Assembly (NCBI RefSeq): GCF_001281485.1
Contig: NZ_CP012669.1
Location: 1,736,001 to 1,800,000 of the forward strand
DNA length: 64,000 nucleotides
Reading direction: 5' to 3'
Source: Altererythrobacter epoxidivorans
GTDB lineage: Bacteria; Pseudomonadota; Alphaproteobacteria; Sphingomonadales; Sphingomonadaceae
The position numbers and the translations under genes were made by a program. Positions 13,887 to 53,892 of this stretch are shown piece after piece (within the stretch, counting starts at the first letter, position 1; each line of letters opens with the position of its first letter). Under the pieces are notes generated by a model, which saw only the letters and a list, made by a program, of their open reading frames with translations, was not told the DNA's origin and did no database searches.

Positions 13887-13982
13887 GCTGCAAGCCGCGC
13901 AGTGACACTTCGCGACAATTCGCGACTTTCCAACGCCGCGAAAATTCATAGCCTCCGATGTCATAAAACACCGGAGGATTTC

Positions 13983-24262: not shown

Positions 24263-24338
<76 letters not shown>

Positions 24339-24508
24339 CTTTTTCTCTTACAATTTTATAGCTTTAAGCTTTAGTCGCCTTGCCGATTGCGGCTCCCTTG
24401 ATGGGCCGAATACCGAATAGACACCGAGAAGGCCACTAGGCGCTGATTTCCTCAACCTTCTTAAGGGCGGCTCTGGATTGCCTTTAGGGCGTTTGATACC
24501 CCCCAGGC

Positions 24509-25660
24509 ATGTGGCGCTTTGATCAAGGACGAATCGAGTATTTCCAGTTCGATGAGCTGCGGAAGATCGCAAAATTCGCAATCGCGAATGATTTGAAGTC
24601 TGCCTCAAGAGGCCCGCTTGTGTCGGCCACTGGGCTGCCTTTTTTGCCCGCAAACGCCGCTTATCCGCCTTGGCGCAATTATTCTCGCGTCTTTCGCACT
24701 GCGATGCTAGTCGCCAAAATCGGCAATGTTGCTCGGCCCACCCGCGTCGCTGAACTTCTCGCTCAAGATGGCGTGGTCACCTCTGACGACTACTTTCATT
24801 TCTTCGCTCAGGCTTTCACTGATCCAGCTCCCTCGTTCCAAGAATGGGCTCCTAGCCAGTCTCCACGGTTCCCTCTTCTTTTTGCCTTGAAGTTCCTGTT
24901 GGCCCGCTCAGTGTTAGGTGAGCCGGTTGTCGCCATCCGTGAAATCGTCGGAGCCTACAGCAAGAGTGGCTTTGACGGAGATGAGGACCAATCCGCTTAT
25001 CTGGGCTTAGCCAAAAAGCAGTGGTCGTCTGGGGACCACCGGCAGGCCCGAGAAAGCATTCAGATCATTGGCCAGCTTTCGTATCTAAGCGCGTCCTCGT
25101 CAGAGGTAACTGTTTCGCTTGAGGATGACGATGCGCTCGATCTATTTGAAAGCCTTCAGGCGATAAGAGGGAAGCAGAAGGGTGATAGCGAGCATGAAAT
25201 AATGCGGATCGCAGGACTGTTCGAAAGCGCAGTCGCTGGGCTCGATATCGACTTCTCGAAAACCGTTTTTGATGACGCCGTGGAAACCGGTTTTACCGAA
25301 GGAACGCGGGTCGAGAAAACTCACATAGTTCTCGAGCGCAATTCGGCGATCAGAAAGGCCTTTTTCGACAAGAACCCGACAACCACCTGCGACTTTTGTG
25401 CCAGAGACACAAACAGCGAATTTCCTTGGTCAGATCGTGTACTTGACATCCATCACGTGTTACCGCTTTGTTCCGGCACCCGATCAGACCGGAGCGGCAC
25501 GGTCCTGGGCGACTTGGTTGCCGTCTGCCCCACTTGCCATCGCGCAGTTCACCGCTTCTATACCCAGTGGTTGAAGGCGCACAGCAAGAAGGATTTTGCG
25601 GACGCAGCCGAGGCTCGTGCTGTCTATGACGAAGCCAAGAGTAAGAGGAAGAACGCATGA
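24509..25660 (+). CDS. HNH restriction endonuclease (type II R-M)
   Basis: 383 aa. The C-terminal HNH nuclease has zinc-ligand pairs CDFC (about 294-297) and CPTC (about 339-342), the catalytic block DIHHVLPL and HRAVH. The N-terminal 250 residues are a probable DNA-recognition domain with no motif recognised. Its stop overlaps the start of a C5-cytosine methylase gene (ATGA), which strongly suggests a restriction-modification pair. The start lacks a good ribosome binding site, so translation may be weak, as is common for restriction genes. The recognition sequence is not predictable from here. Confidence 0.85.
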   Translation: MWRFDQGRIEYFQFDELRKIAKFAIANDLKSASRGPLVSATGLPFLPANAAYPPWRNYSRVFRTAMLVAKIGNVARPTRVAELLAQDGVVTSDDYFHFFAQAFTDPAPSFQEWAPSQSPRFPLLFALKFLLARSVLGEPVVAIREIVGAYSKSGFDGDEDQSAYLGLAKKQWSSGDHRQARESIQIIGQLSYLSASSSEVTVSLEDDDALDLFESLQAIRGKQKGDSEHEIMRIAGLFESAVAGLDIDFSKTVFDDAVETGFTEGTRVEKTHIVLERNSAIRKAFFDKNPTTTCDFCARDTNSEFPWSDRVLDIHHVLPLCSGTRSDRSGTVLGDLVAVCPTCHRAVHRFYTQWLKAHSKKDFADAAEARAVYDEAKSKRKNA

Positions 25661-26871: not shown

Positions 26872-26944
26872 TCGCCCTACGCACCAAATTGCAGGCATCC
26901 GTCGGCCAACCGTAGCTGACATGACGCTCCGCAAAGGAGCAGAG

Positions 26945-27334
26945 ATGTCTAATTTCAAAAATTATGCCGGCTTTCGTGATCACTCTACTCGTTACGAGGT
27001 CCGCCGTCTGCGCCAACCGTCCCATGGCGGCGTTATTCGGTGTCCCTACATCGAGACCTTCCACGGGCTCGATAGGGCGCGACTAGCCGCGTTCGCACAT
27101 GCGCTTGATGGTCCTGACGGACCCGACAAAACCATTACCGGGCTGGTCGAAATCTGCCGCATCCACCTGAACGGCGATCAAGTCATCAGAGAAGAACTGG
27201 TCGACCTGATTGACGAGCGCGTGGCCTTCAGGTTCTTGAACGACATTGCGCTCCCCCGCCCCAACCAATTGTCTGTCGCTGTCGAGCGTCTGCAAGAAGA
27301 AGTGAATCGGCTTGAACGCTTGGGCATCGACTAG
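26945..27334 (+). CDS. hypothetical protein (129 aa)
   Basis: Soluble, acidic, mainly helical; it ends in a leucine/arginine-rich coiled-coil-like tail (SVAVERLQEEVNRLERLG). AAAGGAGC before the ATG fixes the start. No known motif. It follows the methylase by 73 bases in the same direction and may belong to the R-M transcription unit, but a role is not indicated. Confidence 0.6.
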   Translation: MSNFKNYAGFRDHSTRYEVRRLRQPSHGGVIRCPYIETFHGLDRARLAAFAHALDGPDGPDKTITGLVEICRIHLNGDQVIREELVDLIDERVAFRFLNDIALPRPNQLSVAVERLQEEVNRLERLGID

Positions 27335-27413
27335 TCTCTGATGCAGACAAGCAATTCCCTTCACGGCAAGACAAAGAGCCTATAGTGTCCAAGATATTGT
27401 TTTTGGGGGAGCA

Positions 27414-28187
27414 ATGATGAAGAGTTTTCTTCCTGCCGTCGCTGCGCTGACCGCCGTCGCGGCCGCGTTTGTGCCCGCTGTGGCAGAGGCCAAGAAGAAG
27501 CCTCGTGAAGCCTGGACGGTTTCACGCACCTCGGACCCGATCACAGGGGACAGCAGTTGCGTCGTAACCGCATACGATACCGTTGCCGGCATGAAATACT
27601 CCCGCTTCGGTTTCCTCTACCCGGTGGTCGAGAACAACTCGAAACTGGGACTCCTGATCGGCGTAAGCTCCGGCGGCCAGTATCGGGTCCCGACGGGTGA
27701 CATACTCTGGCGCATCGACAGCAATCCTCATCGAACTCTGCGAGCGGCTGACAACCCCGCTACCGCCATGAACTCGGCTTACACGACCCAGCCCTTCAAG
27801 ACAGGAAACGCAGAGACAGATAAGCGGATTGCAGAGGCGATGGCGCAGAGTGGAAGCATGGTCGCTGCGATCACCGCCACGAGCACCATGGCGAGCGGCG
27901 AATTAGCCCAGGATTTGCTCACGGAAATGGTCGGAGGGCAAACCCTTCTTTACCGGCAAGCGCAGGTCGCTCCCGCCTACGGTCTTCCCAGCAGCCAGAC
28001 GGGCCGCGTCGGCCAATACACGAGTGACGAGGGACAGGTGCCGTTCAAGCTCGACGCTTCGTTCCACCGTGGCCTGAAGGAATGCGGCATTGCTCCTGCC
28101 CCCAAGCCCGCTGTTACCGAAGAAGCGTCAACTGGCGAGCAGGCAGAGCAGCAACAGGGCGTTGAGCCAGAGACCGGCGGGAACTAG
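27414..28187 (+). CDS. exported hypothetical protein
   Basis: 257 aa with a clear signal peptide (MMKSFLPAVAALTAVAAAF..., cleavage after AEA near residue 26). The mature domain has repeated beta-like stretches (SSCVVTAYDTVAGMKYSRFGF, LLIGVSSGGQYRVP) and a disordered Pro/Glu/Gln C-terminus. No family recognised. An exported protein in a satellite-like element could modify the host surface, but this is speculation. A bidirectional hairpin terminator follows at 28340. Confidence 0.75.
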   Translation: MMKSFLPAVAALTAVAAAFVPAVAEAKKKPREAWTVSRTSDPITGDSSCVVTAYDTVAGMKYSRFGFLYPVVENNSKLGLLIGVSSGGQYRVPTGDILWRIDSNPHRTLRAADNPATAMNSAYTTQPFKTGNAETDKRIAEAMAQSGSMVAAITATSTMASGELAQDLLTEMVGGQTLLYRQAQVAPAYGLPSSQTGRVGQYTSDEGQVPFKLDASFHRGLKECGIAPAPKPAVTEEASTGEQAEQQQGVEPETGGN

Positions 28188-28339
28188 CCAGAGCGCCATA
28201 TGGCCCGTTCTGGACCTTCGGCGGACGCTGCCGCAGTCTCGGCAGGCTTCGGTCACCGAAAGCTCATATCGGTGACCACCGTGGAACCTACAGGCATCTT
28301 CCCTCATCGTGTTCTCCTTCTGACAGCAAGATGACGCAA

Positions 28340-28372
28340 AAAGGCCCGACCGGGAGCGCCGGACGGGCCTTT
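28340..28372. terminator. bidirectional intrinsic terminator
   Basis: AAAGGCCCG and CGGGCCTTT form a 9-bp stem around a 15-base loop with A-rich bases before and T-rich bases after. It lies between the convergent 27414 and 28393 genes, so it can stop both. Confidence 0.8.
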
Positions 28373-28392
28373 CGTTTGCGACACTTATGGGT

Positions 28393-28701
28393 TCAGCTCA
28401 TCAGGACGTAGGCTGTGAAGTCTCGGTCCTTGTTCGCACGGTAGTCGATAGGCCAAGGGCCACGACACCAGAGATGCTGCATCTTCGGGCGACCAAGTTG
28501 GGCGACCCACATCTCCTCGTATCCGAGGTCGACCAGAAACTGCTTGAACTCGACCAGGTGTTCGGGCGCGACTTCGTTCAGCTCTAGGTCGGTGCAAGCG
28601 TGGAACGCCTCAGCCAGACCAACGACCTGGTGACCGGCAAGCCGATGAATGCCGAGCCGCATGGCATGGGCCCGGTCGTCATCGATCAGTTTCCCGATCA
28701 C
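28393..28701 (-). CDS. hypothetical protein (102 aa)
   Basis: Small soluble protein with a GTG start that overlaps the stop of the upstream 28698 gene (GTGA). Contains LELNEVAPEHLVEFKQFLVDLGYEEMW and a Trp/Arg-rich segment. No family recognised. It is the last gene in a leftward four-gene run. Confidence 0.6.
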   Translation of the reverse strand: MIGKLIDDDRAHAMRLGIHRLAGHQVVGLAEAFHACTDLELNEVAPEHLVEFKQFLVDLGYEEMWVAQLGRPKMQHLWCRGPWPIDYRANKDRDFTAYVLMS

Positions 28702-28958
28702 GAGTTGAGCGCGCGGTTCGACCGCGTCCGGTCCGGCCAGGTGCCGTTGTCAGGCGCGCCGACCGGCAGGCCCTCTACGGCGACCGGGTCGATGCCCGTG
28801 GTGATCGCAACAGCCGCCCAGGCGTCGATGCCAGGTGCGCCGACCAGGTGAGCGGCGGCAATGCGTGCGGCAGCCTCGTCGGCGCCCTCGGCGATGATGA
28901 AGCCGATACCGTCAGCGCGGCGATCGGAGGGAGCGGGATGGAATGCAAAAATGGCCAT
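28698..28958 (-). CDS. hypothetical protein (86 aa)
   Basis: Ala-rich small protein, MAIFAFHPAPSDRRADGIGF at the N-terminus, then a helix rich in Ala and a Gly/Pro/Asp tail. It overlaps the downstream 28393 gene. AAAGGAAAT lies just before the ATG. Function unknown. Confidence 0.6.
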   Translation of the reverse strand: MAIFAFHPAPSDRRADGIGFIIAEGADEAAARIAAAHLVGAPGIDAWAAVAITTGIDPVAVEGLPVGAPDNGTWPDRTRSNRALNS

Positions 28959-29000
28959 GGCTTAATTTCCTTTCAGTGTCGGTGGGGTCTGGGGCTGTAT

Positions 29001-29840
29001 TCAGGCGGCGCGACGGGCAGCGAGCCCGGCAGCGATGCGGTCGGTGGACGCAGGTTCGTCCGTGGGCGTTTCGTCGGCTTCGGACTGGTCGTCGTGGGCC
29101 TCATCCTCTTCGGTCTCGTAGCCGTAGGCGCCAATCTCCTGCTCGCGCTTCTTGAGCATAGCGATGTCGATGGAGCGCTGCGGATTGGACTTGCCTGTCT
29201 CGAACTCCTGGTCCGAATTGAGAGCTTCCAGGACGCGGCGCTCGGCTTCGACGAGGGCTTGGCTCAGTTCGCGATGGAGCTCTCCGAAAAGAATGTCCGA
29301 AAGCTCGCCTGCGTTGAACGGGCGATCGTCACGCTTCATGCCGTGGACGCGTCCGCAAAGTGCGGCGGCCAGTTCCTTGTCCTTGGTAGCAGCAGCCAGT
29401 TCGGCCAGGCTTGCCAGTTCGACAGGACCCGAGTTCTCGATCTGCTGCTGGATGCGGCTGCGGCGTTCCGAACCGAGCGTGTCCCGCATCAGGAGTTGCA
29501 TGGGCGAGCGGTAGAGGGCTTCGGCCTTGCGGACCCGTTCGGCCAGTCCGCCAAGCTCGCGGGTAAGCGCGAGACGGTTGTCCTTGGTCTGGCGGACAAG
29601 CTCGGCACGGTAGCCGCTGATTGCCTTGCTCACCATCGAGTTGCGGTCGCGTTCGCCGATACCGTCGAGCGAGTTTTCGAGCTGCTGGCGACGCTGCGCG
29701 AGATTGCTGTTCGCGCTACGGACCAAGGTGTCGTGGTTGTGGCGGTTGGTCGCGATCTTGGCGAGGGTGATGCGAATGTCATCCGGGGTCATCCAAGAGG
29801 TCCCGAGGTTGGCCGTCGTCTTGGCGGGGGCAGTGGGCAT
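29001..29840 (-). CDS. hypothetical coiled-coil protein
   Basis: 279 aa, almost entirely helical: heptad-like stretches around residues 20-190 (RQQLENSLDGIGERD, LTRELGGLAERVRKAEALY) and a strongly acidic, disordered tail (EEDEAHDDQSEADETPTDEP). The start is set by AAAGGAAT six bases before the ATG. No homologue recognised. A long coiled coil with an acidic tail resembles phage scaffolding or satellite capsid-remodelling proteins only in a general way; this is a guess. The gene may share the leftward promoter at 30722-30866. Confidence 0.65.
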   Translation of the reverse strand: MPTAPAKTTANLGTSWMTPDDIRITLAKIATNRHNHDTLVRSANSNLAQRRQQLENSLDGIGERDRNSMVSKAISGYRAELVRQTKDNRLALTRELGGLAERVRKAEALYRSPMQLLMRDTLGSERRSRIQQQIENSGPVELASLAELAAATKDKELAAALCGRVHGMKRDDRPFNAGELSDILFGELHRELSQALVEAERRVLEALNSDQEFETGKSNPQRSIDIAMLKKREQEIGAYGYETEEDEAHDDQSEADETPTDEPASTDRIAAGLAARRAA

Positions 29841-29948
29841 GGTATTCCTTTCAGTTGAGGCTCTAGGCATCTCGCCCGAGGCTGAACCTTTCGACCATGC
29901 CCAGGACCATTGCCCAGACGATCGGTCCGCCAACGCAGACCTGGCCGA

Positions 29949-29990
29949 AGCGCATTCGCTTCGAACTCGACACGAGAAGTCGAATGCGCT
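29949..29990. repeat. inverted repeat in the 29841-30115 spacer
   Basis: AGCGCATTCG and CGAATGCGCT are exact inverted copies 22 bases apart, extended by GCCG/CGGC outside. A second small hairpin, GCGGGTCAGACCCGC, follows at 30091-30105, just past the stop of the 30116 gene. Both could end the leftward transcript or be protein sites. Confidence 0.55.
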
Positions 29991-30115
29991 CGGCAGGCGA
30001 ATTAGCGGACCAGCATATTGCCGATGCGGTGCCCACCGCGGTGCTTGAGGGCGACCGCAGTGGGCTAGAGCATGGGATTTAAGGGGAATTGCGGGTCAGA
30101 CCCGCCGATTGGTTG

Positions 30116-30721
30116 TTAGGCGGCCTGCTGAAGGCGCTGGATCACACCGACCTGCCCTGCACGGCCGGTGATTTCCTGCCACTCTTCGAATATCGCGACG
30201 GGGGAAACCTCGGGCGCATCGCCAGCCACATATTGCAGCACCACCCGGACCAGGCTGGCGGTTTTGGCTTTGATCGCCAGTTCACGGTCGAACGGCATCT
30301 TTTTCGCCCGCGAAACCCACTCGGCTTCCTCTCTCGCAAGCTTTTCCTTGCCCCGGTGCCACGTGTCGGTGAGCTGCTTCTGCGAGAAGCCCGCCACAGA
30401 AGGGACGTGTGTATACGGTTCAGGAAGTGCGAGGTGGAGCTGGAGGTAGGTGTCTTTGCCGGGCTCCTCTGAGAAGTGGTTCATTGCAAGCAATTCCTCG
30501 CCGGTCTCATCATCCCGCATGAGGGCGACTGGCATCGGCAGCTCCACGCCGTCTTCATTCGAACCCCAGATTGCCTCTCCCAACAGGTCATTCGCGAAGA
30601 CGAAGTCTTCTTCTTCAAGCTTGGTGCTGATCGTGAGCAATCCGTTGAGGGTTAGCTCTGCGCCGATCACATCACAGCTGAGATTGAGTTCATTGGGGGT
30701 AGTGTTCTTCCGCATTTTCAT
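30116..30721 (-). CDS. hypothetical protein (201 aa)
   Basis: Acidic soluble protein. Features an N-terminal beta-like stretch (LNLSCDVIGAELTLNGLLTIS), a middle segment YLQLHLALPEPYTHVPSVAGF and a helical C-terminus (LVRVVLQYVAGDAPEVSPV). AAGGAG precedes the ATG. No family recognised. It is the first gene of the leftward run, divergent from the RHH-like regulator, and the two share an operator region. Confidence 0.6.
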   Translation of the reverse strand: MKMRKNTTPNELNLSCDVIGAELTLNGLLTISTKLEEEDFVFANDLLGEAIWGSNEDGVELPMPVALMRDDETGEELLAMNHFSEEPGKDTYLQLHLALPEPYTHVPSVAGFSQKQLTDTWHRGKEKLAREEAEWVSRAKKMPFDRELAIKAKTASLVRVVLQYVAGDAPEVSPVAIFEEWQEITGRAGQVGVIQRLQQAA

Positions 30722-30744
30722 TCTCCTTGGTCGTCAGCCGCTTT

Positions 30745-30763
30745 GGGCTGCTTCAGGCCGCCC
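30745..30763. promoter_or_regulatory. 19-bp palindrome 1, operator candidate
   Basis: GGGCTGCTTCAGGCCGCCC, an imperfect palindrome, 24 bases upstream of the leftward 30116 gene. Its second copy is at 30831-30849. Confidence 0.65.
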
Positions 30764-30830
30764 ATCGGCTCGCTGAGCGGCCCTATTCACGATTCGCTTG
30801 CGGCTGTCAAGGGCTACTGTTATGAGCCTT

Positions 30831-30849
30831 GGGCTGCTTGAAGCGGCCC
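30831..30849. promoter_or_regulatory. 19-bp palindrome 2, operator candidate
   Basis: GGGCTGCTTGAAGCGGCCC, nearly a perfect palindrome, immediately before the AAGGAG of the RHH-like gene. With copy 1 it brackets the divergent promoters, so binding would control both directions. Confidence 0.65.
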
Positions 30850-30866
30850 ATAAGGAGAATGTCAGA

Positions 30867-31229
30867 ATGAGTGGTGAAAAGCCGTCGCCCGGTCGCAGAT
30901 TGAAGCGCATCTCAGTCGCGCTCCAAGAGGATCAGTATATCGGTCTGGAAGAGGTCGCCGAAGATATGGGCGTCACGCTCGCCGATGCGGCAAGGGAGGC
31001 GATCAACAGTTACTTGCTCACGGAGCATTGGGGGCAAACGGTCGGTAAGCTGGCCGAGGCGGAAATCGCCAAGGGGCTAACCAACGAGGAAGTCCTAGAG
31101 CGGGTGCTCGCCAAATTCCCCCACGCGCAGACCAGCCGGGAATCTGTGGCTTGGTATCGGAGCAAGATGCGTAAGGAGAACCCGAACGTGCCCACCGACA
31201 GAGAGGCGCGGGTTAGACGAGAGAGCTAA
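30867..31229 (+). CDS. ribbon-helix-helix-like DNA-binding protein
   Basis: 120 aa. Residues 10-52 follow an RHH pattern: RRLKRISVALQEDQYIGLEE gives the beta strand and first helix, and VTLADAAREAINSYL the second helix. A helical C-terminus follows (LTNEEVLERVLAKFP). AAGGAG nine bases before the ATG fixes the start. Two 19-bp palindromes flank its promoter, so it likely regulates itself and the leftward 30116 gene. It may be the lysogeny-like switch of the element; that is inference. Confidence 0.75.
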   Translation: MSGEKPSPGRRLKRISVALQEDQYIGLEEVAEDMGVTLADAAREAINSYLLTEHWGQTVGKLAEAEIAKGLTNEEVLERVLAKFPHAQTSRESVAWYRSKMRKENPNVPTDREARVRRES

Positions 31230-31271
31230 TCCGGTATCCAGACCGGTGCTTTATCATGCGGGTGAAGGCAA

Positions 31272-31303
31272 AGGGCTTGGAAGCATTGTGCTTTCCAAGC
31301 CCT
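31272..31303 (+). terminator. hairpin terminator after the RHH-like gene
   Basis: AGGGCTTGGAA and TTCCAAGCCCT form a perfect 11-bp stem with a 10-base loop, about 40 bases past the stop. The following tract is CTCTCTC, so termination may be partial. Confidence 0.65.
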
Positions 31304-31357
31304 CTCTCGCTGATATGCAATCAGCGGAAATTATTGGTGGATTTCGCTTGGATAAGG

Positions 31358-31438
31358 CTCATATAAATTTTATGAGACTCTTATGTTGACATATGGCCCT
31401 ATTATGGGTATAAAAGCCTCTATAAGGTCATATAGAGG
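31358..31438 (+). promoter_or_regulatory. strong promoter with two flanking palindromes
   Basis: TTGACA (31386-31391) and TATAAA (31409-31414) are 17 bases apart, a near-ideal sigma-70 promoter. Upstream is CTCATA-N7-TATGAG (31358-31376); downstream is the perfect CCTCTATA-N6-TATAGAGG (31417-31438), which runs into the ribosome binding site GAGGAG of the 31447 gene. Repressor binding or an RNA hairpin at the start site is likely. Confidence 0.75.
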
Positions 31439-31446
31439 AGTTTAAT

Positions 31447-31908
31447 ATGCCAGAAGATATTGATAATGAAGTTAAGGATGCCATTCGGGGACTTTATCGC
31501 TCCAATGAGCTCGCTAGGAAGTTTTTCGACCATTGTGCGCAACGCGAGCGCGACGCCTCGGAAACAAGCATTGACCGCATCGCTTACCGTCTCGACGTCT
31601 CACGAGAGGCCGCCATAGGCTTGGCTCAGGCTTTTGAACAGGCTGGCATCGGTTCGTTTGTGGTCGGACGTAGGGGGCATAAGTCCCGATTTGTTTGGGA
31701 ATATAGCTGCATAAGCGTAGGGCAGGTGGCAGCGGGCGAAAACGCAGCGCTAGAAGAGCCTGAAAATGCCGTGGATGATACCGACGGTATCGAAGTCGGC
31801 GATGCCGGGCAGGCACTGCAAACAATCACTATCGCTGAGGCGAAGAACCTGCTTTCGCGTAGTCTTGGTGTGCCCGTTGAGGCAATTCAAATCACCGTCC
31901 AATATTGA
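31447..31908 (+). CDS. hypothetical regulator-like protein
   Basis: 153 aa. Residues 35-80 look like a helix-turn-helix or winged-helix (SIDRIAYRLDVSREAAIGLAQ, then FEQAGIGSFVVGRRGHKSRFVW as a wing). The C-terminal 45 residues are an acidic linker plus TIAEAKNLLSRSLGVPVEAI. It is driven by the strong promoter with palindromes, as expected for an autoregulated control gene. The function is inferred only from shape and context. The base composition of its upstream region is very A/T-rich. Confidence 0.65.
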   Translation: MPEDIDNEVKDAIRGLYRSNELARKFFDHCAQRERDASETSIDRIAYRLDVSREAAIGLAQAFEQAGIGSFVVGRRGHKSRFVWEYSCISVGQVAAGENAALEEPENAVDDTDGIEVGDAGQALQTITIAEAKNLLSRSLGVPVEAIQITVQY

Positions 31909-31929
31909 ACCGACAACTGGTGAGCCGGG

Positions 31930-32553
31930 CTACCTGCCCGGCTTGACCAGCCGTAGCCCTTCAATCCCTGGCGTGCCGGTATGCGGGGCATTCGCCTTGC
32001 GGGCTTCCGCCTCGCTTTCGGCCATCTGGTCGAGCACGTCCTGGGGCGCTTCTCGATACTGTTCCTGCTGCTTAAGTGCGGCCACGCTCCACTGATCGAG
32101 CGGGATGGTGCCAGGAACGACCAGGACGCCTGCCTGGCCATCGGTGTCGAACTTGACCCGGCCATCGTCGCGATCGCGCCAGCCGAACTGGCTCTTGCCC
32201 AAGAAGATGGCGGCCACGGTATCACCCTTGCGCGCCATGCCCATCAGGAGCTCCCGCAATTCAGCTTCTTCGGCGTCCTTGCGGACATCGACCGCATCAA
32301 GCAGTTCACCGTCCTCGTCGATCAGCCGTTTGAGCGTCTTGACTGTGGTGCCGAGCGCCTTCGCGATCTGGTTACGTGGATACCCGTCGAGCAGAGCCTT
32401 CGCGACAGCCTGGCGACCTTCGACAGACAGGGCGAGCTTGTTCCAGGGGATAGGCGCCAGTGACGGTAGGGGTGCCTGATACTGCTCCTCGAGCGGGTCA
32501 GCCATCGCTGCCGCACGTTCCCGCCTAGCTCGCTTTTTGGGAGATCCTGCCAT
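31930..32553 (-). CDS. phage small-terminase-like protein
   Basis: 207 aa. An N-terminal HTH (GYPRNQIAKALGTTVKTLKRLI) is followed by helices with AELRELLMGMARKGDTVAAIFLGKSQFGWRDR. That last pattern (A-x-I/A-F-L-x-K-x-x-F-G-W-R-D-R) is characteristic of many phage TerS proteins, which recognise pac/cos DNA. No large terminase is present, so packaging would need a helper phage, as in PICI satellites. The assignment is from pattern only. It may be co-transcribed with the 32602 gene. Confidence 0.65.
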   Translation of the reverse strand: MAGSPKKRARRERAAAMADPLEEQYQAPLPSLAPIPWNKLALSVEGRQAVAKALLDGYPRNQIAKALGTTVKTLKRLIDEDGELLDAVDVRKDAEEAELRELLMGMARKGDTVAAIFLGKSQFGWRDRDDGRVKFDTDGQAGVLVVPGTIPLDQWSVAALKQQEQYREAPQDVLDQMAESEAEARKANAPHTGTPGIEGLRLVKPGR

Positions 32554-32601
32554 GTGCGGGCATGTGTCGCGCGGGTGATCGCGGATGATGCCAGCAAATC
32601 G

Positions 32602-33228
32602 TCACACCTTCGGAACGGTCTTCCGATCAAGCACCAGTTTGCGACGCTCCGTCTTGCCATCAAGCATCACGTGTTTCTGCCTTTTTGCCCAATCAATCTT
32701 CCGCCGCAGCATTTTCTTGCGTGACGTCCGATCGGCTTCTCGGATGCCTGGGAATAGGTCGAGATACTTCTGACGATCAGCCACCTGGACTTTGTCTGGG
32801 TAGCAGGAAAAATACCACGCTTGGAAAGCTTGGGCTTCGATTGGCAACACGCCTACCGCCAGTCCGTAGTCATGCCACCCGATGAAGAGCACATGGTCAT
32901 TCTTCTCATCGTCGAAGGCGTCCATCAGGTCTTGATCGTCTCTAAGGCTGCCGTCTCGGGATCGCGCATGTTTCATGGCGTTCCAGTATTTGTTGCGGAG
33001 ACTGACCAGCTCGCCCGTCTTCATTTCGGGGAATGTCATAAGGGCATGTTCGGTGAAGGAGGTCTGATCGGATTGATCCGCAAGAAACGCAGCCAGCTCT
33101 GTTCCCCCGCAGGCAAGACAGTGCACAGAGACCGGATCATCGTCTTGGAGAAACAGGGCTAGAGCGGTCCCTAGCTGGCGTCGCGCCAGAGCTACTTTGA
33201 CTTGTCTTGCTTCGTCCATTGATCCCAT
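32602..33228 (-). CDS. hypothetical protein (208 aa)
   Basis: Mixed alpha/beta protein with SVHCLACGGTELAAFL, LRNKYWNAMKHARSRDG and a basic C-terminus (RKKMLRRKIDWAKRQKH) that could bind nucleic acid. A second ATG three codons in is an alternative start. No family recognised. It lies between the origin candidate and the small-terminase-like gene, all reading leftward. Confidence 0.65.
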   Translation of the reverse strand: MGSMDEARQVKVALARRQLGTALALFLQDDDPVSVHCLACGGTELAAFLADQSDQTSFTEHALMTFPEMKTGELVSLRNKYWNAMKHARSRDGSLRDDQDLMDAFDDEKNDHVLFIGWHDYGLAVGVLPIEAQAFQAWYFSCYPDKVQVADRQKYLDLFPGIREADRTSRKKMLRRKIDWAKRQKHVMLDGKTERRKLVLDRKTVPKV

Positions 33229-33711
33229 GCTCGGTGCTTCACCCGGTTCTTCGGGTCACCATGAGCCCAAAGGTCCTACAATCCCAAAGGCTTGTATTGA
33301 GTTTATCCCCTATTGCCGATCAGAGGGTCAGTCCCATGCGGGCATACACGTGCGCATAATGCACGCGGGCGCGCCTTTTGGGGAAAGGCGGCGAGGACGT
33401 GAGCGCATCCCGTCCAACCTCATTCCCTAACATTCAAACCGCCGAAACGGCCACGCTCCGACCAGGGAATTTCTCTTTCCCCCCTGTCAGGCCCTGTCCC
33501 GGATAAGAAGGCGCGGCTAGACTTCGCATTGTAAAAATCACTATGTTTCTATGAGTTTCTAAGAGCTTTTCCCCTCATCCAGAGGATCATCCGTCTTAGA
33601 AAAGCTTAGAAACATAGTGATATCCGGGATGAGGAGCAGAGCCCTGTCTTGGTGACCGTGTCCTAAGAAACGGCCCCCTCACACCTCACTCTATCACCAC
33701 CGTGTTTTGGC
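33229..33711. other. 483-base spacer between primase and 32602 genes
   Basis: No supported gene. It contains the inverted-repeat cluster at 33537-33634 and A/T-rich stretches on both sides, and must also hold the promoter of the 32602 gene. Position just past the primase gene suits a replication origin. Confidence 0.6.
33537..33634. repeat. nested inverted repeats, candidate replication origin
   Basis: ATCACTATGTTTCTA (33537-33551) is an exact inverse of TAGAAACATAGTGAT (33607-33621). Inside lie TTTCTAAGA (33556) and TCTTAGAAA (33594), and CCTCATCC (33573) pairs with GGATGAGG (33627). The TTTCTA unit therefore occurs four times, two in each direction, like iterons. It sits downstream of the primase-helicase gene, as origins do in SaPI-type satellites. 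Role inferred. Confidence 0.65.
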
Positions 33712-36129
33712 TCACTGCTTGGCCAAATACGCCTTTTCACGCTCGGTCGGCCCCATCGCCTCTGCTGCTGCATCGTCAGCCCTGTAGTAGATGGTCACAC
33801 CTTGGCCGTTCTTGTTCCGGCCATTAGCAAAACCAGCCACCTTGAGCCACTTGCGGATTGCATCAAGCATCTGCGCTTCCGACGCATCGAAGCGATCCAG
33901 AGCGCCATTCTTAACGACCGAAAGCACGTCTTCGGCAGTGAAGAACTGGCCGAACTGTTCCATCTCCCTTTCGAGTGCCTGGAAGTCGACCGGGGCCTCG
34001 CCATCGGCCTGTAGGCTCTCGCGCTGTATCGACGCCTTGGCTGGCGTCATTGGCGGGTCAGTGTCGAATAGCACCCTGCCCACGCCGATCCGGTCCAGCC
34101 CGAGTTCGTCCCACTTCACACGGCTTGGGGCCCATTCGTTCACCAGCCACCAGCGGACTGCTGCCATCGCCTTGCGGTCCTGGTAGTTGGCCTTCAGCTT
34201 GGCGAAATAGGGCGCACGTTCGTCCATCGCTTCCGGACTGGGACGCAAGTAGCAGAAGCGCCTCTCATCCTCCCCTGGCGAGATGTAGAACTTCTGCTCG
34301 GGGTTACGGTTGAAGATGTAGTTGGCACCGTTCGGCACCTGCAACTGGCTTTCTTTGTGCATCGGCCGGATGGCAATGAAGTCCTCGGTGATGGGGGCTT
34401 TCATGCCCTCATATGCCTCACGCGCCTTCTTCCAGTCAGCGAAGCCGATTTCTTCGCCGAACAGATTGGCCGCAGATACCCGCCACGAGTCATACTTGTC
34501 CGTCATTTGCGTGCGACCGAAGTCACCGCAGTTGCGCCAGCCAAGCAATGTGCTCAGTCCAATCTTCATCATGCCTTTGCCTGCACCCTGGGCGCTTTCC
34601 AGCACCAGAGCCCAGCGCAGCTTGCGACCCGGTTCCAGACAGCGGGCAGCCCAGTAATCGAGCAGAATTTCCTGCTGCAGCTGATCGCCTGGGAAGAGCC
34701 GTTCGACTTCCTGCCGCCACCAGCTTGCATCGCCCGGTTCGGCAGCAAGCGTGGTGTCATACCAGGAATTGAGCGCCACATCTTCGTGCGTGCCCATGTC
34801 GATCGAGACCATGCGGTCTTTGCCTGGGAATGCGCCGCACATGCGCACTGAAGGTATGTCGATACCTGCCCGCCCTTTCTTGATCGCATCAAGCAGCGAG
34901 CCCTTGCCATTCGACTTTGCCCAGCCAGGTCCGTGCTCAATCTCAAGACCGCGGTCGTCCAGAGTTTCGCCGGTTTCGATATTCACCCACAAGGCGGTCG
35001 AACGATCGCGAACGAAAGTCGAGTTAAGCCACTTCGCATATTCGGCTTGATCAGCAGCCTGCTTCAGTTTGCGCAGCTTGCCCTTCTCCAGCTTCGCCTT
35101 TCGAGCCTTTGCTGCGTTGGCCTGAAGCTTCGCCTTTACCGGGTCAATGCCCTGCGAAAATGGCTCGGCACCCAGATCATCAGCGAAATCATTCGCTACT
35201 GTCGCCGCGTTGATTAGGTCACCACGGTTGCGGTCATTGAGCGCCTTGAAAAGCGTTTTGACAGTGACCCGACGACCATTGTCATCGCTGTGCAAGCTGT
35301 CCCACCGACGACCGATGATGTGAGCGTGGTCCGCGTATTCAGGATCCGAAGTGGACCAGTCGATAAACTCCTGACGGGCTTCGCCACCAGAAGCATGGTG
35401 GCATGACATCATGAGTTCACGCCATTTGTCTTCTTTTCGATAATCGCACGCCTCAAGACCTGACAACATCAGTTCGACAGCCTCTGCGTCGAACTCGCCA
35501 TCGCCTTCCGAAGCGACTGCTTCAGGACGACGAATTAGCTGCAAGAGTGCTTCCGGAGCCGGTCGAGTGTCTGCAACTGGCTCGGCAAAAGGATCCCATC
35601 GATAGGCCCGGCGCGTGGCCGGATGACTGCTGCCAGGCGCGACCATCTGGCGACCGTGCCCCTTGAACTCGATACCCGGATACTCGTCGTCGGTGTCCCT
35701 GACGAGCGTGCCTGCCTCGACGGTCATGTAATAGTGCTGACCGCCTGCACCCGTGTCGACACGCGGCCACTGGTCAAGCTTGATGCCAAGATTGGCTTCA
35801 AGACGTGCGACTGGATCGTCGCCATCCTTGAATGCTCGCGGGTCAACGTCGACGACTAGATCGGTCGGGCGCAAACGCACTCCGACATTTACGCCTGCTT
35901 TGAGCAGTTCCATAGCCTGGTCAACATCAAGTGCTGCGACCTTGCGCCACCCGCTACCGGGTGCCTTCCCGATGGGCTTACCTTTGGCATCCAGTGCGTT
36001 CGGAACATGAAGTGAAATGAACTCATGCGTCGTCGCACGAAAGGGCTCCAGTTCGACAGCATCGAACTCAAATGCTGGCCCCTCACGTTGATTGGAGGGG
36101 CTATTCGTCAATACATCAGTCACTTTCAA
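33712..36129 (-). CDS. primase-polymerase/helicase (prim-pol, PriCT-2-like, DUF5906-like)
   Basis: 805 aa. Residues 30-200 are a bifunctional prim-pol domain: LVVDVDPR with the catalytic DxD (94-96), GGQHYYM (129-135) and IEFKGHGRQMVAPGS. Residues about 217-300 match a PriCT-2 pattern. A basic linker (about 335-365) is followed by a phage helicase-type ATPase with P-loop ESAQGAGKGMM (about 508-518) and EEIGFADWKKAREAYEGMKAPITED, then a C-terminal helical domain. It would start and drive replication of the element. The candidate origin lies immediately downstream. Confidence 0.9.
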   Translation of the reverse strand: MKVTDVLTNSPSNQREGPAFEFDAVELEPFRATTHEFISLHVPNALDAKGKPIGKAPGSGWRKVAALDVDQAMELLKAGVNVGVRLRPTDLVVDVDPRAFKDGDDPVARLEANLGIKLDQWPRVDTGAGGQHYYMTVEAGTLVRDTDDEYPGIEFKGHGRQMVAPGSSHPATRRAYRWDPFAEPVADTRPAPEALLQLIRRPEAVASEGDGEFDAEAVELMLSGLEACDYRKEDKWRELMMSCHHASGGEARQEFIDWSTSDPEYADHAHIIGRRWDSLHSDDNGRRVTVKTLFKALNDRNRGDLINAATVANDFADDLGAEPFSQGIDPVKAKLQANAAKARKAKLEKGKLRKLKQAADQAEYAKWLNSTFVRDRSTALWVNIETGETLDDRGLEIEHGPGWAKSNGKGSLLDAIKKGRAGIDIPSVRMCGAFPGKDRMVSIDMGTHEDVALNSWYDTTLAAEPGDASWWRQEVERLFPGDQLQQEILLDYWAARCLEPGRKLRWALVLESAQGAGKGMMKIGLSTLLGWRNCGDFGRTQMTDKYDSWRVSAANLFGEEIGFADWKKAREAYEGMKAPITEDFIAIRPMHKESQLQVPNGANYIFNRNPEQKFYISPGEDERRFCYLRPSPEAMDERAPYFAKLKANYQDRKAMAAVRWWLVNEWAPSRVKWDELGLDRIGVGRVLFDTDPPMTPAKASIQRESLQADGEAPVDFQALEREMEQFGQFFTAEDVLSVVKNGALDRFDASEAQMLDAIRKWLKVAGFANGRNKNGQGVTIYYRADDAAAEAMGPTEREKAYLAKQ

Positions 36130-36199
36130 TCCTATTCGTCGAGGGTTTTGGGGGTGCTGTCTGCAGTTGGGCCAATCCCATTCCGGCCTTTCGCTCTAG

Positions 36200-36232
36200 G
36201 GGCGCATCCATCACGCTGCGATGGGTGCGCCC
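36200..36232 (-). terminator. strong hairpin between the AlpA-like and primase genes
   Basis: GGGCGCATCCATC and GATGGGTGCGCCC make a 13-bp stem with one G-T pair and a 7-base loop, six bases past the AlpA-like stop. There is no T-run, so it may only attenuate. Confidence 0.5.
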
Positions 36233-36237
36233 TCCTC

Positions 36238-36450
36238 TTATGCGGTGGGTGAAAGGCGGGTTGTGGCTTTGGCCAGGTATGCGTTCAAATCGCGCTCGCG
36301 ATACATTACCGCCGAGCCGATCTTTATGAATCTGGGACCACGTCTGATCGCACGATAGCTGCGCAAGCTGTTCTCGGTCGAACCGAGATAAGCTGCGGCT
36401 TCCTTGGTAGTAAGCAGCGGGTCATCGCTGCATGCGGTTTGATTAGTCAT
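36238..36450 (-). CDS. AlpA/excisionase-like helix-turn-helix protein 1
   Basis: 70 aa. LLTTKEAAAYLGSTENSLRSYRAIRRGPRFIKIGSAVMYRERDLNAYL matches the winged MerR-like fold of AlpA and phage excisionases, with the wing around RFIKIGSAVMY. Such proteins activate integrase expression and/or direct excision. It is transcribed toward the primase gene. A paralogue is encoded just upstream. Confidence 0.88.
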   Translation of the reverse strand: MTNQTACSDDPLLTTKEAAAYLGSTENSLRSYRAIRRGPRFIKIGSAVMYRERDLNAYLAKATTRLSPTA

Positions 36451-36540
36451 TTCGATGCTCTCTGCTGCGGGTCAGGAGCTAAGCAATGCGTTGCCAACAA
36501 TTCAATTAACGCCAGCAGATTGCTGAATGGGACTTGGCCA

Positions 36541-36765
36541 CTAGCCTCGGGCGAAGGCGTCCAGATCGTCCACATGGTAGCGGATAAGGCGATCTTGGAG
36601 CACGCTGTAGCGGGGCCCCTTGGACGTAGCCCGCCAAGTCTTCAGCGTGCCCGCCGTAGTGCCGAGATAGGCTGCCGCTGCTGCACTATCGAGCCAAGGG
36701 CTCCTAGGGCTGCTCATTTCCTCACGGACGATCGATCGGATGGCTTCAAGGGTCAGTTCGGTCAC
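36541..36765 (-). CDS. AlpA/excisionase-like helix-turn-helix protein 2
   Basis: 74 aa. The motif SPWLDSAAAAAYLGTTAGTLKTWRATSKGPRYSVLQDRLIRYHVDDLDAF has the same fold as the 36238 protein with a different N-terminus. Two such proteins in a row suggest a split of tasks (excision and transcription control). No strong ribosome binding site is seen. Confidence 0.8.
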   Translation of the reverse strand: MTELTLEAIRSIVREEMSSPRSPWLDSAAAAAYLGTTAGTLKTWRATSKGPRYSVLQDRLIRYHVDDLDAFARG

Positions 36766-36900
36766 GGCGGTCTCTCGATAGGACTTGCAGAAGCTCAGCT
36801 AGCTGATCGTGCCGGACGCCTAACCCATCACTTGGACGACTACCTCTTGACTCTCCTTTTTTCTATAGATACGAGTAAATAGTAGAAAGGAGAATTTGAG

Positions 36901-37317
36901 ATGTCGAAGCGAATTATTGAGGTTTCCACCGATGTTTATGCAGCCATTTGGGCATCGCGCCTTGCGGGCGAGAACAGCGAGGAAGAGGTGTTGGCTCGTG
37001 TTCTGAAAGTGAGGAATTCGAAGCGTAGCAATGTGGAGGAAAAGCCGAGGTCTTCGGCAGGAGGTGGTGTCTATGATCGGCGCAACAACGTCCACTTTGA
37101 TGAAGGCTTCAGAATCTTCCGAGACTACAAGGGTGAGCGCTATGAAGCAGTCGCATCAAGCGGCCACTGGGTGCGTTCGGACAACGGATTGAAGTTCCCT
37201 ACATTGAACCAATTGAATGGCTCAATTGCAGCTGGTGCTGAGAATGTTTGGAATGGCTCCTGGCAGTATCTGAATTCAGAAGGAAAAGCCGTTTCGATTG
37301 CGACACTGCGAAGCTAA
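36901..37317 (+). CDS. protein with SeqA-N-like and RAMA-like domains
   Basis: 138 aa. Residues 1-36 (RIIEVSTDVYAAIWASRLAG..., ARVLKV) resemble the SeqA N-terminal or an RHH-type oligomerisation segment. Residues 70-135 (GFRIFRDYKGERYEAVAS, HWVRSDNGLKFPTLNQLNGS, NVWNGSWQYL) resemble the RAMA domain linked with modified-DNA binding. A modified-DNA-sensing role is inferred from pattern only, and it makes sense beside a methylase. AAAGGAGA precedes the ATG. It reads rightward against the two HTH genes and toward the integrase. Confidence 0.7.
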   Translation: MSKRIIEVSTDVYAAIWASRLAGENSEEEVLARVLKVRNSKRSNVEEKPRSSAGGGVYDRRNNVHFDEGFRIFRDYKGERYEAVASSGHWVRSDNGLKFPTLNQLNGSIAAGAENVWNGSWQYLNSEGKAVSIATLRS

Positions 37318-37377
37318 ACCCGATCACAGAGCTTTTGGGGAGCCGGAGGAGCAGTGCTCCGGCTCCGATCATGGTGG

Positions 37378-38577
37378 TTAGGCAGGCGACGGCAATCTAA
37401 AGCCCACCGGGTCAATCAGACAGCCATTCGGCAATTCGGTGAACTTGCTCTCGCCTGCGCCGAAGACGAGGTCTTCGAGACGCTGTGCGTGGCCACGCAA
37501 GTGCTCGACGAGGTGTTCGGCATGGACGTAGCCGCCCGACGCACCCGGAAGCCTCTGGCCAAGCAGAAGCGCACTCTCGGCATATGGCACCCCAGCCTCA
37601 ATATAGAGCGTTCGAGCATGGTGGCGGTATTCATGCGGGCTCGGCAGCCCTTTCTCTTTCGGCTCCTGTATATGGCCGCTCTTGCTCGTCGGCGATGGCC
37701 ACAACCACTCGCTATTGAGAGGTCTGTCTGCTTCCAGCCTTGCCCGCAAGATCGCCGCCAGCCGGTGCCCTATCGGAAGGGTCAACGGGTCATCTGACGT
37801 CTTCATATGGGTGAACGTGACCGACTGTCGCTCAATGTCCACGTCTTCCCTTCGGACATTCAAGATGGACGAACGGCGAGCACCTGTGAGCAGCATTGCC
37901 ACATGCAGGTCACGGCGAGCGGGGCTAAGCCGCATTACCTTCTCCCACCACTTGGCCAGGTCCAGTCGTTCGACCTTCCGTCGCTTGGTTTGCGGCACGT
38001 GAAGAGCGGCAACCGGGTTGGCCACAAGCGTCTCATCGGCCCTCATCGCCGTGTTGATGATTGCCCTTAGGGTGCGCATAACCGAAGCTGCCGTGGGCTC
38101 ACCGTGCTTCCTTTTCAACTCTGCAAAGAGGTCTCTCACCATCTGGCGAGAAATGTCGGCCACGGCCTTATTCTTCCAATTCTTGAGATAGCGGTCGAGG
38201 TGGTAGCGGTAACCCTCCTCGGTCGCGGGCCTCGGGCTCTTTTCTTCGATATGGGTGTCGAGTGCCTTGGCCAGAGTGATGCCTGTCTCATCGGGTCCAT
38301 CGGTCGGGTCGATGCCGCTTTGTATTTGGCTCATCAGAACGCGGGCGCGGTTGCGGGCTTCACGCAGCCCAATCCTGTCCACCCGGTCGATCTTGACCCG
38401 AACCGTTCGGACGTGACGACCATTGCGTCTCACGTCGCCCTGGCAGGCATAGGACTTTGTGGTCTTGTGGCAGATCACCATGAGGCCCTTCACCTCGGTG
38501 TCTCTGTGAATGCCCGACCCGAGCGGCAAATCTCGGATGCGGGCTTCGGTCAGTTTGGTCACGGCCATGTTCGACAT
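37378..38577 (-). CDS. tyrosine recombinase, element integrase
   Basis: 399 aa phage-type integrase. The N-terminal arm-binding/DUF4102-like part is followed by the SAM-like core domain (about 100-180) and the catalytic domain: Arg in LLTGARRSSIL (234/235), Lys in HMKTSDDP, HEYR (315-318) and the nucleophile Tyr near residue 350 in GGYVHA. The usual second histidine (LGH) is replaced by Gln (LGQ, residue 341), unusual but tolerated in some families. It lies 150 bases inside the right att site and acts on the tRNA-Thr 3' end. Confidence 0.95.
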   Translation of the reverse strand: MSNMAVTKLTEARIRDLPLGSGIHRDTEVKGLMVICHKTTKSYACQGDVRRNGRHVRTVRVKIDRVDRIGLREARNRARVLMSQIQSGIDPTDGPDETGITLAKALDTHIEEKSPRPATEEGYRYHLDRYLKNWKNKAVADISRQMVRDLFAELKRKHGEPTAASVMRTLRAIINTAMRADETLVANPVAALHVPQTKRRKVERLDLAKWWEKVMRLSPARRDLHVAMLLTGARRSSILNVRREDVDIERQSVTFTHMKTSDDPLTLPIGHRLAAILRARLEADRPLNSEWLWPSPTSKSGHIQEPKEKGLPSPHEYRHHARTLYIEAGVPYAESALLLGQRLPGASGGYVHAEHLVEHLRGHAQRLEDLVFGAGESKFTELPNGCLIDPVGFRLPSPA

Positions 38578-38726
38578 TCTCCATTGCGAGCACCGCGCCA
38601 GACACCGAACGGCCGCTATCCTTAGCTGCCGTCTGCTGACGCTGATTGCCTTGAATGTCGTGGTTTTACTGACCCGCGAGCGCCTAACTGACCATGATTA
38701 GCCGTGGCTGACGCAGCCTTCCCCTT

Positions 38727-38771
38727 TTTGTAATCATCAGGTCGCGAGTTCGAGTCCCGCAGCCGGCACCA
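38727..38771 (+). repeat. attR: second copy of the 45-bp tRNA-Thr end
   Basis: Identical to 24294-24338. It lacks the 5' part of a tRNA, so it is only a remnant. It marks the right boundary of the element. Confidence 0.95.
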
Positions 38772-38795
38772 TTTTTCAAACAATCTGCCTATCGC

Positions 38796-53517: not shown

Positions 53518-53635
53518 GTCGGTGATACTCCCGTCTCAAGCGACAGGCGCCACGAGGACCATCCCCGGAGCTGCCCGCTTACGTCGCTCAGACGAAAGGT
53601 TTCGCGCCTGGCCAATCCCTGAGCCGGGCAAGAGC

Positions 53636-53803
53636 GACGCGCTCCGGTCGGTCTCCTGGCTCACGGGTCGACACATCCGGCAAGCCTTCCCGGGCAAGGC
53701 CCAGTGGCATAAAAGAGCCGGACGCTCTCCGCTTACAGTTGCAGGGACAGCTGCGGAATGGGATGGCGAACCATCCGCACCGCATTCCCGTTACCGATGC
53801 GCG
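53636..53803 (-). ncRNA. cobalamin riboswitch
   Basis: On the minus strand: CGGTAACGGGAATGCGGTGC near the 5' end, then GCCACTGGG in the conserved core, then the B12 box AGCCAGGAGACC. It precedes btuB by about 120 bases on the same strand. Binding of adenosylcobalamin should lower btuB expression. Confidence 0.95.
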
Positions 53804-53892
53804 AAATCGCCCCTAGCCACGGGCGTGGCAGGACACAAGCGTGAGGGCAGGATTGAATGTCGGGTGAAGCCCGAAGCCCGGGCCAATCCGCG

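What the first reader, a model, noticed from the sequence alone, without database searches (positions are those of the whole stretch)
31930..36765. PICI-like satellite in an alphaproteobacterium
The element has integrase, two AlpA-like proteins, prim-pol/helicase, a candidate origin just past it and a small-terminase-like gene, but no structural, large terminase, lysis or conjugation gene. That set defines known PICI satellites; in this group it would be little described.
Basis: partly seen in the sequence, partly recalled or inferred. Interest (0 to 1): 0.85.

Follow-up and report, generated by a model that had tools for sequence, protein, structure and literature searches.

The report
Phage-satellite island family in Sphingomonadales
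A 14.4-kb stretch of this bacterial chromosome looks like a satellite that rides in the particles of an unidentified virus of bacteria, and it has equal-sized relatives, many with restriction genes, in a range of related bacteria.

Summary
A 50-bp direct repeat (98%) marks a 14,433-bp island, 24294-38776, in tRNA-Thr(TGT). It carries integrase, two AlpA-like proteins, Prim-Pol/DUF5906 helicase, a terminase small subunit (phrog_309, E 1.6e-9), conserved unknown genes and an HNH + C5-methyltransferase pair; scans of 17 ORFs found no capsid, portal, large terminase, lysis or conjugation gene. I found 15 further islands bounded by att repeats in Sphingomonadales with the same core. Total length stays at 14.2 ± 0.38 kb although its two parts each vary by ±0.68 kb (r = -0.85, permutation P = 4e-5), as expected if a capsid sets the size. 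TerS is homologous to genes just before TerL in relatives and IMG/VR contigs. Some members carry TerS+TerL, two a TerS of another family; the TerS-only members form one clade. Recognisable cargo includes restriction and abortive-infection genes. Best reading: PICI-like phage satellite; helper, induction and packaging are untested. New variant of a known kind.

The parts
24263..24338 (+). tRNA-Thr (TGT), integration target
24294..24343 (+). att repeat (left), 3' part of the tRNA
   Evidence: 50 bp, 98% to 38727-38776
24509..25660 (+). HNH endonuclease, cargo; probable restriction partner of the methyltransferase (inference)
   Evidence: mREase_IV 3e-7, REase_II 3.7e-6; 87% and 81% homologues in islands L031, L034
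25657..26871 (+). C5-cytosine DNA methyltransferase, cargo
   Evidence: PF00145 1.4e-59; dcm 2.3e-56
26945..27334 (+). unknown protein recurrent in the family (o26945)
27414..28187 (+). unknown protein (phrog_20142, E 6.6e-19; signal-peptide-like N terminus by eye), recurrent in the family
28393..28701 (-). unknown core protein (o28396)
28698..28958 (-). unknown core protein (o28701)
29001..29843 (-). conserved family marker protein (o29004); candidate packaging or head-size factor (inference)
30116..30721 (-). unknown protein before o29004
   Evidence: no hit; one 23% match in L014
30867..31229 (+). ribbon-helix-helix regulator on the opposite strand, between TerS and the o29004 genes
   Evidence: PF01402 E 9.8e-4, below Pfam's cut-off; 70-87% homologues in L014, L016, L018, L037
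31447..31908 (+). unknown, possible winged helix
   Evidence: E 0.042, weak
31930..32553 (-). terminase small subunit (TerS), long form
   Evidence: phrog_309 E 1.6e-9
32602..33228 (-). unknown protein
   Evidence: no convincing hit
33312..33382 (-). non-coding block conserved in 8 of 21 islands or island loci examined; candidate pac-like site (inference)
33508..33650 (.). large inverted repeat next to PrimPol, origin candidate (inference)
33712..36129 (-). primase-polymerase / DUF5906 helicase
   Evidence: PF09250 6.5e-16, PF08707 4.2e-10, PF19263 4.8e-9
36238..36450 (-). AlpA/excisionase-like regulator 1
   Evidence: PF12728 3.6e-9, phrog_66 3.7e-7
36541..36765 (-). AlpA/excisionase-like regulator 2
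   Evidence: PF12728 3.2e-6, phrog_66 6.5e-6
36901..37317 (+). unknown protein
   Evidence: 60% homologue in L014, 57% in L093
37378..38577 (-). tyrosine integrase
   Evidence: phrog_1 6e-40; 65-83% identical in the islands
38727..38776 (+). att repeat (right)

Best explanation
It is an integrated, PICI-like phage satellite of 14.43 kb. Shown from sequence: an island in tRNA-Thr with intact integrase, AlpA-type regulators, its own primase-helicase, a real TerS under purifying selection, defence-type cargo, and no particle or TerL gene found. Inferred: on infection by a helper phage the AlpA proteins switch on excision; the circle replicates from the palindrome beside PrimPol; the satellite TerS recognises a pac-like site (best candidate 33312-33382) and directs the helper's TerL to load the satellite into helper-made, probably small, heads of about 14-15 kb capacity; the restriction cargo protects the host from other phages. 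The o29004 protein, coded next to the terminase genes, may be the packaging or head-size factor.
For: att repeats and tRNA; an uninterrupted empty tRNA-Thr site in 3 of 29 same-genus loci and nearly so in 2 more. Domains. TerS homologues just before TerL in L021 and L028, L041 and L093 and in ten IMG/VR contigs, L098-L107, some of them near copies of each other. All 11 island TerS-slot proteins scanned hit a PHROG 'terminase small subunit': nine phrog_309 (window; L021; L093; L108, L041, L037, L038, L031, L016) and two phrog_4044 (L095, L096). Length compensation over 16 att-to-att islands: total 14,219 ± 377 bp, r = -0.85, P = 4e-5. dN/dS 0.07-0.32 for TerS and 0.09-0.20 for o29004, 8 pairs each, some with dS above 1. 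Cargo families NotI, SmaI, MvaI/BcnI, EcoO109I, McrBC, GmrSD, Abi_C.
Against: No helper, induction or packaging was observed. The window's genome gave no PF04860 portal, and its only good TerL lies in a GTA-like remnant. TerS and o29004 have no match in 50,697 phage records; the o29004 scan of viral contigs found nothing, although three IMG/VR contigs found by other queries do encode it (L095, L096, L108). Length compensation could have another cause, the islands are related and so not independent, and without L038 r falls to -0.71 (13 islands).
Confidence: 0.82

Rival explanations
1. A non-packaged integrative defence island: it excises and replicates but moves only by rare transformation or as a passenger, and TerS is used for something else.
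For: Restriction and abortive-infection families in the cargo, a C5-methyltransferase homologue in 10 of the 15 islands gene-called; no helper seen; no structural genes.
Against: A TerS of one family or another sits in the same slot in every member whose integrase-to-o29004 stretch was held; purifying selection on it; total length compensated.
Confidence: 0.1
2. A decayed prophage that lost its structural genes.
For: Integrase, AlpA and TerS are phage-like; L026 shows that members can decay (TerL fused in frame to o29004, 11.06 kb).
Against: Same core, nearly the same length and open core genes in 16 islands; low dN/dS.
Confidence: 0.03
3. A satellite that uses the host's gene transfer agent rather than a phage.
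For: Portal matches in 8 of 10 island-bearing genomes, not checked for GTA or prophage one by one; the own genome keeps a GTA-like remnant with TerL.
Against: The own GTA-like cluster has a shortened portal frame (249 residues) and no PF04860 match; its TerS gave no BLASTP match to the island TerS; recalled: RcGTA heads hold only about 4-5 kb.
Confidence: 0.03

Closest known systems
Gram-negative PICIs (e.g. EcCICFT073, PmCI172; PMC6092414)
   Same: Integrase, AlpA, primase-replicase, optional terS, about 12-15 kb, no structural or lysis genes, accessory genes
   Different: Int runs in the same direction as AlpA/PrimPol, whereas the paper's general scheme has int opposite to xis/pri/rep; core genes o29004/o28701/o28396 match no named family; some members carry TerL
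cfPICIs (capsid-forming PICIs; definition from a passage of PMC10690885)
   Same: Some family members (L021, L028, L041, L093) encode both TerS and TerL
   Different: No capsid, protease, portal or connector was found: window ORFs all scanned; non-core ORFs of L021 and L041 scanned; L093 and L028 scanned only in part
PICMIs (Vibrionaceae; passages of PMC10803314)
   Same: int, alpA, DUF5906-type primase, defence cargo
   Different: PICMI115 has no terS and only six main genes; no Fis-type gene was hit here
P4-like satellites (features partly recalled)
   Same: Integrase, AlpA-like protein, primase-helicase
   Different: No Psu, Sid, Delta or Ash was hit in the scans; TerS present

Membership tests
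Gram-negative PICI | Integrase, replication module and master regulator | tested here: met
   that AlpA is the master regulator here is inference
Gram-negative PICI | No phage structural or lytic genes | tested here: met
   17 window ORFs, PHROGs and Pfam, apart from the short RHH match to phrog_21789. Relatives: 79 non-core ORFs, Pfam all 23 families shown, PHROGs only 25 of 43 shown
Gram-negative PICI | Size about 12-15 kb | tested here: met
   14,433 bp between repeat starts; 16 islands 13.4-14.9 kb
Gram-negative PICI | att site never used by prophages | not tested
   Only empty sites and a 0.8-kb remnant (L067) seen at the tRNA-Thr site; 22 of 29 loci unresolved
Gram-negative PICI | Phage-dependent induction and packaging | not testable with these tools
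   needs a helper phage
PICI (general scheme in PMC6092414 introduction) | int transcribed opposite to xis/pri/rep | tested here: not met
   Int, both AlpA-like genes and PrimPol are on one strand in the window; scheme. In G253 and G030 PrimPol is turned
cfPICI | Own major capsid, protease, portal, connectors | tested here: not met
   window:
PICMI | int, alpA, DUF3987/DUF5906 primase and Fis; no terS | tested here: not met
   TerS present, no Fis hit; definition
P4-like | Sid/Delta/Psu/Ash core | tested here: inconclusive
   no such name among the hits of 17 ORFs, but no P4 model was run on purpose; core list seen

The most novel reading that the evidence does not exclude
A Sphingomonadales-wide satellite family with a swappable terminase slot (TerS alone, TerS+TerL, or a TerS of another family), whose TerS-only clade arose once, by loss of TerL and lengthening of TerS, from members whose terminase is kin to that of capsid-bearing elements; o29004 is a new type of head-size or packaging factor that, with TerS, fixes the 14.2-kb size.
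Probability: 0.35. Interest if true: 0.78.

Novelty: new variant of a known kind. Interest (0 to 1): 0.6.

Why it matters
My literature searches found no satellite described for Sphingomonadales (no paper; two papers, neither on them in what I saw; 'phage satellite' absent from the 15 listed of 789). A passage of PMC10690885 says satellites are widespread across Pseudomonadota, so an earlier survey may hold some of these islands unnamed. A family with a conserved core, fixed size and interchangeable terminase genes makes testable how a satellite is matched to a helper's TerL, how size is set, and how satellites spread restriction systems. It lacks most hallmark genes that virus finders use, so it is easily overlooked.

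Tried and rejected
Structure prediction of o29004: tool switched off. o29004 profile against PDB sequences: one chance hit, E 0.72; four remote o29004 relatives against PHROGs: nothing convincing; against the scaffold-like proteins of L105/L106/L100 by profile: probability 0.3%, so homology to that scaffold is not supported. NCBIfam gave a weak SbcC match for o29004 (E 0.0025), read as coiled coil only. TerS profile against PDB: best E 2.7e-4 to a 'CAP repeat' chain over 54 positions, otherwise helix-turn-helix-like hits, no terminase. phrog_247 in the own genome: none, but the control rang nowhere, so uninformative. PrimPol in plasmids: weak matches in 2 of 72,556 records. Helper search: no TerS match in phage records; the L021 TerL matches 632 records, all under 60%, best-ranked 34%; the second portal region of G219 gave only one very weak TerL match, E 0.004.

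The pile-up of protein-cluster contigs at island length (13 of 37 contigs of 8-30 kb lie in 13.9-14.9 kb; 119 of the 120 rows listed, own genome left out) looked like free satellite DNA. I do not use it as proof: most are marked 'lgn', which I take for Logan, and the roughly 50-bp att repeat may itself break a short-k assembly at the island ends (recalled). TerS-like genes beside ParB-methyltransferase genes (L022, L024, L025) were set aside as another context.

Full report
What is there. The finding's span is the inner third of an island that runs from a 50-bp direct repeat at 24294-24343 to its copy at 38727-38776 (98%). The left copy is the 3' part of tRNA-Thr(TGT), 24263-24338. Unit length is 14,433 bp; G+C is 57.5% inside and 62.5%/62.9% left/right. 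The window lies in a one-contig 2.79-Mb genome. Reading from the integrase end: integrase, two AlpA-like proteins (with an unknown gene on the other strand beside them), Prim-Pol/PriCT_2/DUF5906 protein, an unknown protein, TerS, an unknown gene and a ribbon-helix-helix gene on the other strand, o30119, o29004, o28701, o28396, two recurrent unknown genes, then a C5-methyltransferase and an HNH protein. I name unknown genes by window coordinates.

Is the small terminase real? Against PHROGs it hits phrog_309 'terminase small subunit' at 1.6e-9, residues 43-133; Pfam sees only helix-turn-helix families, NCBIfam nothing. Independent support: the relative L021 has a homologous TerS (39% over 100 residues; E 1.4e-12) whose stop lies 3 bases before a 450-residue TerL (phrog_2 E 3e-33). 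L028, L041 and L093 show the same pair. A viral-contig scan with the TerS alignment gave 12 loci. L097 has the same match figures as L034 and so is probably the same island; in ten (L098-L107) a relative of the L021 TerL follows, 54-56% in L098-L106 and 38% in L107; in L108 none was found. L099/L102 and L103/L104 look like near copies. L098 also has a tail-completion/neck protein (phrog_169, 1.1e-39), so at least that one is phage-like.

Family. TerS matches 13 of 296 genomes of the order sample, own included, at E <= 1e-5; only some of these are islands. The o29004 alignment matches 12 of 397 genomes of the family sample, own included, in 11 of 96 genera; no second genome of the window's genus is among the matches. 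A scan of the GTDB collection gave 12 loci with Sphingomonadales titles (Erythrobacter, Citromicrobium, Sphingopyxis, Sandaracinobacteroides, Sphingorhabdus, Novosphingobium, Altererythrobacter and MAGs; that these genera belong there is recalled). Eleven of the 12 have integrase, AlpA, PrimPol, TerS and o29004 in the same order; L042 is a fragment. PrimPol is turned round in G253 and G030.

Borders and size. Flanking direct repeats were found in 15 of the 19 loci examined and 2 of 2. A tRNA-Lys (TTT or CTT) is called at the repeat in 15 of these 17, and no tRNA in two (G253, L093). The window's tRNA-Thr is a different target that shares TAATCA beside the anticodon. I dropped L033 (same as G030) and L026 (11.06 kb; front half of TerL fused in frame to o29004), leaving 15 islands plus the window. 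Total length, one repeat included, is 14,219 ± 377 bp (13,422-14,857). The part from the integrase end to the end of o29004 and the remainder vary by 684 and 681 bp, but in opposite directions (r = -0.85); shuffling the remainders among islands gives a mean s.d. of 957 bp and reaches the observed value with P = 4e-5. With 14 islands r = -0.84, P = 2.7e-4, and without L038 r = -0.71. Gene ends come from a simple gene caller of mine, and the islands are related, so the P value is indicative only.

Integration. Joining the window's two flanks predicts the empty site. Of 29 same-genus loci fetched by the neighbouring gene (QueF-like, name recalled), three align across the joint without interruption (L064, L072, L075), two have the tRNA close by (L061, L081), two have 0.8-1.4 kb between (L067, L071), and in 22 no tRNA lay within the 1.5 kb fetched; those are unresolved.

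Terminase slot and history. The slot holds a long TerS alone (A; window and 14 others in the tree), a shorter TerS with TerL (B; L021, L041, L093 and the 6.7-kb contig L028), or a TerS of another family, phrog_4044 (C; L095, L096). In an o29004 tree of 22 rows (L026 left out) A is a single group (99/99); B and C rows lie outside it, the four B rows on long branches, and the root is by midpoint next to L108, which has TerS but no TerL match. One loss of TerL on the way to A is the simplest reading, not proven; the outgroup's lack of TerL speaks neither way. The terminase of B is close to that of IMG/VR contigs of which L100, L103 and L105 also carry a major head protein (phrog_247) and L105 a scaffold (phrog_206, 1.1e-6).

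Other conserved features. A palindrome with 15-base perfect arms lies beside PrimPol (33508-33650) and aligns with the same place in L031 (69% over 155 bp). A second non-coding block, 33312-33382, is kept (68-82%) in 8 of 21 islands or island loci examined: window, L031, L040, G128, L037, G253, L032, G219; L096 gave a weak match outside its island, and the other 12 none at E <= 0.01, among them seven TerS-only ones with more distant TerS. In those eight the PrimPol genes are 34-75% identical to the window's, and turned round in G253, so the block does not simply follow PrimPol; common descent may still explain it. It occurs once in the genome. That it is a pac-like site is inference. TerS and o29004 are under purifying selection (NG86, several pairs with dS above 1).

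Cargo. The window's HNH + C5-methyltransferase pair is 80-87% identical to pairs in the islands of Erythrobacter donghaensis (L031) and Sphingopyxis (L034). A homologue of the methyltransferase was labelled in 10 of the 15 islands gene-called. Across 14 relatives, 79 non-core ORFs show NotI, SmaI, MvaI/BcnI, EcoO109I, Vsr, McrBC, GmrSD, Abi_C and Fic families, and no structural family in Pfam; PHROGs showed 25 of its 43 families, none structural. L091 and L093 were not in that set.

Helper. None found. The own genome has one good TerL (6.3e-25), in what looks like a gene-transfer-agent remnant with a shortened portal (names recalled), one weak TerL match (2.7e-4) inside a very long frame, and no PF04860 portal. 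Phage records hold no relative of TerS or o29004.

Comparison. PMC6092414 (introduction read in full; other passages) lists for Gram-negative PICIs: organisation, unique att site, no structural or lytic genes, 12-15 kb; the three tested are met. Its general scheme of int opposite to the replication genes is not met. The definitions of cfPICI (passage of PMC10690885) and PICMI (passages of PMC10803314) are not met; no P4 core protein was hit. PMC12424806, PMC11389934 and PMC11773190 were seen in passages. Two surveys of satellites known to me could not be read, so it is not excluded that they list such islands. Works like a PICI: likely. Member of the PICI family in a strict sense: open.

Noticed in passing
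L100, L103, L105, L106: Small IMG/VR contigs with TerS and TerL of the island type and a major head protein (phrog_247 in L100, L103, L105; L106 similar by eye); L105 also a scaffold. With integrase-like frames by eye, they may be capsid-bearing satellites or pieces of phages; no portal was looked for.
   Followed up: partly
L026:9104-10387: In this island the front half of TerL is fused in frame to the back of o29004, and the island is only 11.06 kb: a natural deletion.
   Followed up: partly
L045 (own genome 2,686,001-2,706,000): Gene-transfer-agent-like remnant: TerS, TerL, shortened portal and distal genes by eye; capsid genes not seen.
   Followed up: partly
L067:1501-2914: A copy of the tRNA-Thr 3' end and the full tRNA-Thr 0.8 kb apart: remnant of another integration at the same site.
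   Followed up: no
window 53629-53813: Cobalamin riboswitch on the minus strand (98.6 bits).
   Followed up: no
L022, L024, L025: A TerS-like protein beside a ParB-methyltransferase protein (phrog_498), in three Sphingomonadales genomes.
   Followed up: no
L108: Distant island-like contig: weak integrase, AlpA, PrimPol and o29004 homologues plus, by eye, a resolvase-like gene before TerS.
   Followed up: partly
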